Assembly (NCBI GenBank): GCA_947044405.1
Contig: CAMRHE010000206.1
Span: 2,666,001-2,730,000 of the forward strand
DNA from: Leptodactylus fallax
Lineage: Eukaryota > Chordata > Amphibia > Anura > Leptodactylidae
DNA length: 64,000 nt
Direction of reading: 5' to 3'
Notes under the pieces: model-generated
The model's input: the letters and a program-made list of their open reading frames with translations, nothing else
Database searches by the model: none
Told to the model about the DNA's origin: nothing
Program-made: the position numbers and the translations under genes
Shown: positions 55,910 through 61,660 of the stretch, piece after piece
Layout of the letters: each line of letters starts with the position of its first letter
How positions within the stretch are numbered: position 1 is the stretch's first letter

Positions 55910-58900
55910 TTAGCGGAAGAATGCTGCAATGGTGAAGAGCTCCAAGATCACCTCCAACCCATATAAGACCAGCAGGATACCATTGATAATGACATCTGCT
56001 CTCAGGATATACATCTCCCATACTAGAAAATAGACAGACAGCATGACGTTGCCAGCAGTGAAGAACAGACTGGATCCTAAGCGGAGCTCTTCTTCTGTCA
56101 GGTTTCCCATTGTTCCTGTAGTAAATACATCATCAGTACTATATATGATATAAATCAAATCACAGAATGAGACTTATAGTTTCATTAAAAAACTAATAAT
56201 ACTTATTCCATTTTTGGATGATGGATTGAACAGTGCTCCTTGGGATGCTCAAAGCTTGGGATATGTTTTTATAACCTAACCCTGCTTTAAACTTCTCCAC
56301 AACTTTATCTCTGACCTGTCTGGTGAGTTCCTTGGTCTTCATGATGCTGTTTGTTCATTAGTGTTCTCTAACAAACCACTGAGGCCTTCACAGAACAGGT
56401 GTATGTATACTGATACTAAATTACACACAGCTGGACTCTATTAACTAATTAAGTGACTTCTGAAGCCAATTGTGCGAACTGGATTTTATTTAGGGGTATC
56501 AGAATACAGGGGGCTGAATACTTTTGCACGTCACACTTTTCAGATTTTTATTTGAATAAAATTTTGAAAACCATGTATCATTTTCGTTCCACTTCACAAT
56601 TATCTGCTACTTTGTGTTGGTCTATCACTTAAAATCTCAATAAAATACATTTAAGTTTGTGGTTCTAAGGTGACAAAATGTGAAACATTTCAAGGTGTAT
56701 GAATACTATAAATAGAGATCTATGATGATCATGGATTCTTATCTGCTGAAATGCAACATTTGCTCTTTACAGTATATATTCTTACCTAGGTACAGTCTCA
56801 CAGATTCTACAATCGCCATTAAGAAGAGTAAACCAAGATCCAATGCTAAATTAGAATCAGGATAACTGAAGACCTGACCTGTGGGAATGATATAAAATGG
56901 TAGAAAAGGTGAATACTACAAATATAGAACATAGCCTGCCCCCCCCCCAAAAAAAAGATACCGAAAAGATTATTGACTTGGCATGACACATGTATTTACA
57001 TGCAAGATCTTATACTACTAAGCAATAGTTTGGCTGAATTGAATCCCATCTGGATACTTTCCAGTCCATCACACTGTCTAAACAAGATCCAACATGTAGC
57101 AGACCATCATCATCCTCTAAGTCAAGGCTCCAGTCCAGTGAAAAGAGCCCATCCTAGTACATGGGGCTGAACTGCAATTAGGCTGCAAAACCAAAGACAA
57201 TGCAAGGATTTGGTCTGGTGAATGACATAGGAGCCTCAGGACATGTCTCTGCTGCCTCTTGCTCTGGTGGACTAATCCACCCATACATTAAATGGGCAAG
57301 TATTCAACTGAATGACTTGAGTGTAATCCTACAGTACATTTCACATGTACTACTGGTCCAACTTAAAGGGAACATGTCACTAGGTGTAGGGCCCCTAATA
57401 CCAGGGCCCCAATAGCAGACACAACTATTCTACAATATAAAGCACTGTCAAGTAGTGAATTGGCTGCAACCTTTATCCAAACGTTGCAGTCTCTTCAAAC
57501 AGCTGATCAGTGGGGTCCCGGTTGTTGGACAACTACCGACCTCATATTGATGACCTATACTAACAAAAAATGTAAACATATTTTCGCTGCTTTAAAATAT
57601 GTTCTCAGGATACCAAACTAAATTATGCTACGTTCACATCTGCACCTGCAAGTCTGTTCTTCTGGTCCGTTTGAGGATCAAAAGAATGGAAAAGTGGACT
57701 CTGAAAAAAAGACACGAACGAACTCTGAGTTGACTATAATGGGGTCCACTGAGTGTCTGTTTTTTTTTTTTTAAATTGAAATTGCCAGATGAAAAAGTTG
57801 GGCTTGCAGCAATTTTCATCCAGTGATTTCCGACAGATCTGGGCGGACATCCGATGCGGATGTGAACATAGCCTAAGGAAAAAGTGTAATAACTTTCAAA
57901 CCCTTATGTATTAAAAGAATGGTCCTATGTCTGTTTGTTCACAATTGCCTTGAACTTAACAGCAGGAAAATGACCGAGCGTAGAACTAGCGCTTCCAGAT
58001 ACTTACTTTTATAAATGATCATAAGCAGCGTCGCTATAAAATAAAACACATAATAAAGCACATTGATGTATAGTAGGATTTGCAGTAGAACCGATGACCG
58101 CTGTTATTGAGCCGTTGAGAAAAATGGCTTGGAGAAAATGGAAAGTATATAAAACATGAAACAACAGAGAATATAGAAAGTTGAAATGGCTATAATTTTG
58201 GCTTAAAAGATATTTACTACAGAACACAAGTCAAACATTGGGGGGAAATTATCAATCCCTCTATGCCAGTTTTTGGACATAGAGGGATGATATTGTGGAG
58301 CATATGTGGTACAAGGCCCTTTCTTTCGCTAAACCTGTGCCATAACCCCTGTTCTGTACATCACTCACCATATGGGTGTGAATATGGGTGGAGCCTCGGC
58401 TCGACATATTTATTATAACTGAAGTCAGTTATCTTGCAAGAGCTATAATGGAATCTATATCAGTTATATATAATCTATATCAGTTCCTAACTGGCATAAA
58501 TCTCCATCCTGGCGCATAGGTGTGCACCTGTTTTATGAAGAGGCCCGGGACCTCTACATAAATCAGCCGTGCCCTGCACCTGTCGAGACCTTTATTAAGA
58601 CCATTATTTCTGATATCTCCTCTTATTATTTATATCTTATTTAGATGATGTTTCAGGTTTTTTGATACAGTTTTTGAAGCCAAAACTAGAAGTAGATTGA
58701 AAAAAAGAGAAAGCCATCTATCATTTATAGGTTCTCTTTCTTTATGATCCAGGCCTGGTTTGGGATTCAAAAACAGCATAAAAAAACCCGAATGTGGAAA
58801 CCTAGCCTAAGCCTAGTTGCAGCCCATCATGTATATTTTGGGGTCCGCAAATTAGTAATGCCATATGTCTGCAAAAACGGACAGTGTGTCATCAGAGTGT

Positions 58901-61660: not shown

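What the first reader, a model, noticed from the sequence alone, without database searches (positions are those of the whole stretch)
58101..59838. A 17-nt microexon and a U12-type intron in TMEM80
Between the clear exon 1 and exon 3 the reading frame does not join. A 17-nt exon (59838-59822) preceded by TTTTTTCCACAG and followed by GTATCCTTT restores it and yields residues that align with the TMEM80 N terminus. GTATCCTTT is the exact minor-spliceosome donor, and TTCTCAAC about 14 nt before the next acceptor is a good U12 branch point. A microexon that must be paired across a slow U12 intron is unusual and could make TMEM80 output depend on minor-spliceosome activity, in a gene of the ciliary transition zone.
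Basis: partly seen in the sequence, partly recalled or inferred. Interest (0 to 1): 0.85.

Follow-up and report, generated by a model that had tools for sequence, protein, structure and literature searches.

The report
Minor-spliceosome microexon shared by TMEM80/TMEM216
A frog gene for a protein at the base of cilia contains a 17-letter exon whose downstream intron carries the signals of the rare minor splicing machinery, and the same arrangement lies in its sister gene in the same genome, so both genes probably depend on that machinery.

Summary
TMEM80 (minus strand) has five coding exons; exon 2 is 17 nt (59838-59822). Joined, they give an uninterrupted 142-aa protein whose N-terminus other frogs share. 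Among 193 scored in-frame candidates between exons 1 and 3, only this exon fits. Intron 2 (59821-58101) has a perfect U12 donor, GTATCCTTT; its branch-point-like TTTCTCAAC (7 of 9 positions) lies 14 nt from the acceptor.

New here: (1) a paralog in the same genome, which I name TMEM216 from recall, has the same architecture: 17-nt exon 2, GTATCCTT donor, perfect branch point TTCCTTGAC 9 nt from the acceptor, identical lengths (17, 94, 93) and phases of exons 2-4. Two TMEM17-like genes have no intron there. (2) Public TMEM80 models that read into intron 2 end in peptides whose codons can spell TCCTTRAC 10-13 nt before exon 3 in 30 of 43 records (birds, crocodilians, lizard, mammals; shuffles at most 4). 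The U12 intron is thus probably old.

Most likely U11/U12 at this donor helps define the tiny exon; failure would give an early stop, or an in-frame loss of exons 2+3. No RNA was examined. U12 databases, which may list these introns, could not be checked. A known kind, moderately interesting.

The parts
61642..61660 (-). TMEM80 exon 1, coding part from the ATG (19 nt), U2-type donor GTAAGC
59839..61641 (-). Intron 1, U2-type (GTAAGC...TTTTTTCCACAG), 1803 nt, phase 1
59822..59838 (-). Exon 2, 17-nt microexon, residues GKSSLV with the split first codon
58101..59821 (-). Intron 2, U12-type GT-AG, 1721 nt, phase 0
59813..59821 (-). U12 donor GTATCCTTT
58114..58122 (-). Candidate U12 branch point TTTCTCAAC, branch A 14 nt before the intron end, 7 of 9 positions of TTCCTTRAC
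58007..58100 (-). Exon 3, 94 nt
56786..56878 (-). Exon 4, 93 nt
55910..56115 (-). Exon 5, coding part to the stop, 206 nt

Best explanation
TMEM80 of this frog genome has a 17-nt exon between a U2-type acceptor and a U12-type donor. Shown from sequence: the exon is needed for the frame, its peptide is conserved, intron 2 carries a perfect U12 donor and an acceptable branch point, and a paralog (TMEM216 by recall) has a 17-nt exon, U12 donor and U12 branch point at the homologous place, so the pair was most simply inherited from a common ancestor of the two genes. Inferred: the exon is very short for ordinary exon definition, and U11/U12 bound at the perfect donor helps U2AF hold the acceptor 17 nt upstream, so that the minor spliceosome both removes intron 2 and secures the microexon, making both genes depend on it. 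Predicted when the minor spliceosome is limiting: retention of intron 2 (stop after 4 intron codons), skipping of exon 2 (stop at codon 37), or joining of exon 1 to exon 4, which drops exons 2+3 (111 nt) in frame and removes 37 residues, most of the N-terminal hydrophobic stretch among them.
For: Frame and open reading; only fitting exon among 193 scored; peptide in 25 of 32 frog records; donor and branch point; paralog with the same exon lengths 17, 94, 93 and phases 1,0,1,1, donor GTATCCTT and branch point TTCCTTGAC, gapless alignment over 140 residues at 38% identity; 30 of 43 read-through models compatible with a U12 branch point against at most 4 in 500 shuffles, 34 of 5287 downstream windows, 0 of 126 other N-termini; U12 and U6atac snRNA in the genome. 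Mechanism: U11-59K binds U2AF and its loss causes exon skipping (PMC8034651, passages); U11/U12 can activate an upstream U2-type acceptor (PMC8329584, passages).
Against: No RNA evidence for any junction. The TMEM80 branch point is only 7 of 9, as good as at 209 of 8068 AGs. Pyrimidines before the acceptor of intron 2 (9 of 17) equal those of intron 4 (9 of 17), so that feature does not discriminate. Phase 0 is the less usual phase of minor introns. 13 of 43 read-through models do not fit, two New World monkeys among them. Exon length was not linked to mis-splicing after U11 loss, and microexons as a class did not change in Roifman patients (PMC4667643, passages). A U2 donor can join a U12 acceptor in MAPK12. 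U11 and U4atac searches did not complete.
Confidence: 0.72

Rival explanations
1. The microexon and the U12-type intron are real, but there is no special link between them: the exon is recognised without help from U11/U12, for instance through its strong pyrimidine tract, and the arrangement is an old neutral leftover.
For: Strong acceptor of intron 1 (14 of 17 pyrimidines); no link of exon length to mis-splicing after U11 loss.
Against: The pair is kept in two paralogs and probably across tetrapods, but conservation alone does not show cooperation.
Confidence: 0.22
2. The microexon is real but intron 2 is removed wholly or mostly by the major spliceosome (a converted or dual-class intron that resembles U12).
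For: Imperfect branch point and phase 0 in TMEM80; New World monkey models do not fit the branch point.
Against: The donor GTATCCTTT with T before it fits U12 at every position and has TCC where the U2 consensus (recalled) has AGT; the paralog has a perfect branch point as well.
Confidence: 0.05
3. The 17-nt exon is a chance match and the true exon 2 is elsewhere, or exon 1 is another exon.
For: Many public models place other sequence before exon 3.
Against: 17.8 bits against 1.2 for the next of 193 candidates; the identical hexapeptide in 10 of 32 frog records; 30 of 43 Q-ended alternative models are readable as intron 2 sequence.
Confidence: 0.01

Closest known systems
U12-type introns of ciliary transition-zone genes TCTN1, TCTN2, TMEM231, TMEM107 (named as minor-intron genes in PMC13216214, passages)
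   Different: TMEM80 and TMEM216 do not appear in that paper by the counts (0 occurrences each); the microexon next to the intron is not described there in the passages I saw.
USSE elements of SNRNP48 and RNPC3 (PMC8329584, passages)
   Same: Works like: U11/U12 at a U12 donor activates an upstream U2-type acceptor across a short stretch.
   Different: USSE is a tandem repeat of U12 donors that are not used for splicing; here a single donor that must be used.
Neuronal microexons
   Same: Very short internal exon.
   Different: 17 nt is not a multiple of three, so the exon must be included; neuronal regulation was not tested.
TMEM216 and TMEM17 (Transmemb_17, PF09799) in the same genome; gene names from recall
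   Same: TMEM216: same lengths and phases of exons 2-4, 17-nt exon and U12 intron. TMEM17-like: U2-type acceptor in phase 1 upstream.
   Different: Both TMEM17-like loci have no intron at the U12 site; 11 nt lie between the upstream acceptor and VSSLPLQ.

Membership tests
U12-type intron, GT-AG subtype | Donor RTATCCTTT (consensus recalled) | tested here: met
   GTATCCTTT, 9 of 9
U12-type intron, GT-AG subtype | Branch point TTCCTTRAC (consensus recalled) | tested here: inconclusive
   7 of 9 in TMEM80; 209 of 8068 AGs do as well. Perfect TTCCTTGAC in the paralog
U12-type intron, GT-AG subtype | Branch A close to the acceptor (about 10-15 nt, recalled) | tested here: met
   14 nt; 9 nt in the paralog, slightly below that range
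U12-type intron, GT-AG subtype | No pyrimidine tract before the acceptor | tested here: inconclusive
   9 of 17 pyrimidines, the same as in the U2-type intron 4
U12-type intron, GT-AG subtype | Minor spliceosome present in the genome | tested here: inconclusive
   U12 and U6atac found; U11 and U4atac searches not answered
U12-type intron, GT-AG subtype | Splicing lost when the minor spliceosome is inhibited | not testable with these tools
   no RNA data
Microexon | Internal exon of about 30 nt or less (definition recalled) | tested here: met
   17 nt
Neuronal microexon program | Frame-preserving alternative exon with neural regulation | tested here: not met
   17 nt shifts the frame; regulation itself not tested
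USSE | Tandem U12 donors not used for splicing | tested here: not met
   single GTATCCTT between exons 1 and 3
TMEM80 | Closest to proteins named TMEM80; Transmemb_17 domain | tested here: met
   91% over 142 aa to Eleutherodactylus coqui TMEM80; PF09799 111.9 bits, cut-off 26
TMEM216 (paralog in the same genome) | Closest to proteins named TMEM216 | not tested

The most novel reading that the evidence does not exclude
In TMEM80 and its paralog TMEM216 the microexon and the 94-nt exon on either side of the U12 intron form a symmetric 111-nt cassette (phase 1 to phase 1), kept since before the two genes split. When minor splicing is low, the major spliceosome joins exon 1 to exon 4 and cells make an in-frame protein without 37 N-terminal residues (105 aa in TMEM80), so the level of U11/U12 activity would set the make-up of the ciliary gate by a coordinated switch in two paralogs.
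Probability: 0.1. Interest if true: 0.75.

Novelty: new member of a known kind. Interest (0 to 1): 0.48.

Why it matters
Loss of minor-spliceosome function disturbs cilia (PMC13216214, passages), and which transcripts carry the effect is not settled (my reading). TMEM216 is MKS2 of the MKS module and TMEM80 lies in the same zone (PMC4794247, passages). If the microexon-U12 pair is general in vertebrates, both are direct candidate targets. A 17-nt exon between a U2-type acceptor and a U12 donor is also a clean natural test of whether the two spliceosomes talk across an exon. And gene finders lose this exon: many public TMEM80 models start in what reads as intron sequence.

Tried and rejected
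Processed TMEM80 copy as a natural cDNA: the joined protein found three TMEM80 exon regions and the paralog only (4 matches at E up to 1), so none was seen. TMEM17-like loci as further carriers: rejected, no intron at the site. Strict incompatibility of a U2 donor with a U12 acceptor as a lock on inclusion: dropped, because MAPK12 is reported to join such a pair when U12 is defective. The TMEM80 branch point alone as proof: rejected as weak. Donor read-through in proteins: a turtle model (P0061) runs from GRTSSV into VSF, which fits GTATCCTTT, but V-S also fits a U2 donor; of 8 pattern hits this is the only one that fits, and the pattern missed the 7-residue mammalian peptides, so I give it little weight. 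NCBIfam and PDB gave no name for the paralog. No structure was predicted, since it does not bear on the question.

Literature: papers holding TMEM80 and 'minor intron' 0; TMEM80 and U12 as a whole word 0 (may miss 'U12-type'); TMEM216 and 'minor intron' 0. Of 49 papers holding TMEM80 I saw the listing of 40. Searches were ranked lists of which I saw only the top rows. Supplementary tables and the U12 databases could not be searched, so these introns may already be listed there.

Full report
What is there. The window lies in a 2.5-Gb genome (G000) whose TMEM80 is closest to those of frogs. On the minus strand TMEM80 has exons 61660-61642, 59838-59822, 58100-58007, 56878-56786 and 56115-55910, of 19, 17, 94, 93 and 206 coding nt, which join to 429 nt and 142 aa without an internal stop. 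The protein matches PF09799 over the whole profile and is 91% identical to TMEM80 of Eleutherodactylus coqui and of Engystomops pustulosus. Leaving out exon 2 shifts the frame.

Is the microexon real? I listed AG..GT candidates of up to 200 nt between exons 1 and 3 that keep the frame and hold no stop: 235. Of these, 193 could be scored against a profile from 59 public N-termini (142-aa records; a few of them mis-modelled, which only weakens the profile). The 17-nt exon scored 17.8 bits, the next 1.2. Of 32 frog records, chosen by name from the 120 listed, 25 have microexon-type residues before exon 3 and 10 have exactly GKSSLV; 7 are truncated, mis-modelled or unclear. Of the 285 different protein records listed by three searches (each lists its best 120), 91 fit a strict start pattern, 66 with 5 residues between the split glycine and exon 3 (17 nt) and 25 with 6 (20 nt); the 6-residue form is the one seen in mammals. 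These lengths are read from proteins, not from DNA.

Is intron 2 U12-type? The donor GTATCCTTT fits at every position and is the only GTATCCTT between exons 1 and 3. The base before it is T, the base in excess before U12 donors (PMC7367187, passages). GTATCCTTT turned up in 68 of 3000 dinucleotide shuffles of the region, and a comparable in-frame exon with a pyrimidine-rich acceptor and GTATCCTT in 9 of 3000. TTTCTCAAC matches 7 of 9 branch-point positions at 14 nt; alone this is weak, since 209 of 8068 AGs in the window do as well. The pyrimidine count before the acceptor does not discriminate. The phase, 0, is the less usual one for minor introns (PMC7367187; PMC10639083, average 22%; passages of both).

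The paralog. A search of the genome with PF09799 found five places: two TMEM80 exons and three others. One of the three is a gene that I name TMEM216 from recall; no call gives it that name. In the 20 kb fetched around and upstream of its last exon I read exon 1 (13 nt), then CTCTCTCCTCCAG|GGAGAAGACGTGGAGTT|GTATCCTTAT, a 17-nt exon with a U12 donor, and TTTCCTTGACTGCAGTAG|CTGTCC, a perfect U12 branch point 9 nt before the acceptor. Its first four exons are 13, 17, 94 and 93 nt with phases 1,0,1,1; TMEM80 has 19, 17, 94, 93 and the same phases. The two proteins align over 140 residues without a gap at 38% identity. Homology of the microexon and of the U12 intron is the simple reading. The other two places are TMEM17-like (name from recall of the VSSLPLQ motif); each has a U2-type acceptor 11 nt before the homologous site and no intron at the site. 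I take loss there as likelier than gain in the other two, since gain of U12 introns is held to be rare (recalled).

Other vertebrates. No vertebrate DNA beyond this genome was reachable. Many public TMEM80 models, however, start in what reads as intron 2 and run into exon 3. I took every record in which exon 3 is preceded by Q (CAG, the acceptor) and at least 7 residues in all: 43; 26 with fewer residues were dropped. In 30 of the 43 the codons can spell TCCTTRAC with the branch A 9-15 nt from the intron end. The distance found is 13 nt in 16 records (birds, one unnamed goose-like record, a gavial with ...KILNNFCQ and the lizard Phrynosoma with ...FLDRNYQ), 10 in the Chinese alligator, and 11 in 13 mammalian or mammal-like records (cats, hyena, bear, seal, ferret kin, treeshrew, ground squirrel and three unnamed), where the motif is read in another frame (...ESLTTGQ). 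Controls: shuffled peptides mean 0.68 and maximum 4 of 43 in 500 rounds; 34 of 5287 windows further down the same proteins; 0 of 126 N-termini with V, I or M before exon 3. The 13 that do not fit: six bird models whose last residues could come from an AG 7 nt further up (P0065, P0078, P0096, P0121, P0147, P0167; inferred), P0170 and P0284 with a partial motif, the New World monkeys P0266 and P0280, and P0045, P0099, P0182. The records are related to each other and the shuffles do not correct for that, so the weight lies in the agreement of separate groups in two frames. That TCCTTRAC can be spelled does not show that it is.

Machinery. U12 snRNA (6 matches, best 140.2 bits) and U6atac (14 matches, best 132.5 bits) are in the genome. 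U11 and U4atac were asked for without an answer (among others).

How it most likely works. Shown: anatomy, conserved peptide, U12 signals, shared architecture. Inferred: U11/U12 on the donor helps U2AF hold the acceptor 17 nt upstream. Published precedent: U11-59K binds U2AF and its loss makes the major spliceosome skip exons around minor introns (PMC8034651, passages), and U11/U12 at USSE elements activates an upstream U2-type acceptor (PMC8329584, passages). Predicted failures in TMEM80: retention of intron 2 gives MALTRRGKSSLVVSFG and a stop; skipping exon 2 gives a stop at codon 37, 95 nt before the last junction; joining exon 1 to exon 4 drops 111 nt in frame and gives a 105-aa protein. 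In the paralog retention gives a stop after 3 intron codons (read). Whether such transcripts decay is open: aberrant transcripts of this kind were reported to escape decay.

Against a special role: exon length was not linked to mis-splicing after U11 loss; microexons as a class did not change in Roifman patients (PMC4667643, passages); none of 285 protein records shows an exon 1-exon 4 join by my pattern, whose six hits all have other sequence before exon 4.

What is known. TMEM80 is a transition-zone protein related to TMEM17 and TMEM216 (PMC4794247, passages). TCTN1, TCTN2, TMEM231 and TMEM107 are named as minor-intron genes, while TMEM17 is listed apart from them (PMC13216214, passages), which agrees with the TMEM17-like loci here. 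No paper of the library holds TMEM80 or TMEM216 together with 'minor intron'. Database listings could not be checked. I therefore file this as a new, or at least little discussed, member of a known kind, made more interesting by the microexon shared between paralogs.

Noticed in passing
Protein records P0047, P0072, P0090, P0107, P0110: Proteins named TMEM80 or TMEM80-like occur in bichir, paddlefish, coelacanth, lungfish and a shark, with microexon-length N-termini, whereas PMC4794247 (passages) says that only tetrapods have TMEM80. Orthology was not tested with a tree.
   Followed up: no
Records such as P0053, P0061, P0077, P0103, P0106, P0119: Several turtle and bird models enter exon 3 just before ILFY, after the Gln codon of LSSVPLQ; a CAG there would be a U2-type acceptor 21 nt inside exon 3. 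In this frog the codon is CAA. This could be the cryptic site used when the minor spliceosome fails.
   Followed up: partly
window 24700-24806 (+): Full-length match to U6 snRNA (107 bits); the sequence has no clean run of T after the 3' end, so it may be a copy without function.
   Followed up: partly
window 23260-24336 (+): Open frame of 358 codons that looks like a Tc1-type transposase (recalled resemblance, not searched), with more degraded pieces at 32423-32947 (-) and 40795-41220 (+).
   Followed up: no
window 56198-56707, intron 4 of TMEM80: Repeat with 39 further near full-length copies at 93-95% identity listed from the genome (lower bound), so a fairly recent repeat.
   Followed up: no
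window 62092-62472 (+): Open frame with an ATG followed by a GT donor, head to head with TMEM80; probably exon 1 of DEAF1 by recalled synteny, not tested.
   Followed up: no
window 1-271: 33-bp tandem repeat, 8.2 copies; five of the units carry ATATCCTTTT, which looks like a U12 AT donor. No sign that it is used.
   Followed up: no
window 21117 (-): A second GTATCCTTT on the minus strand; no gene was sought around it.
   Followed up: no
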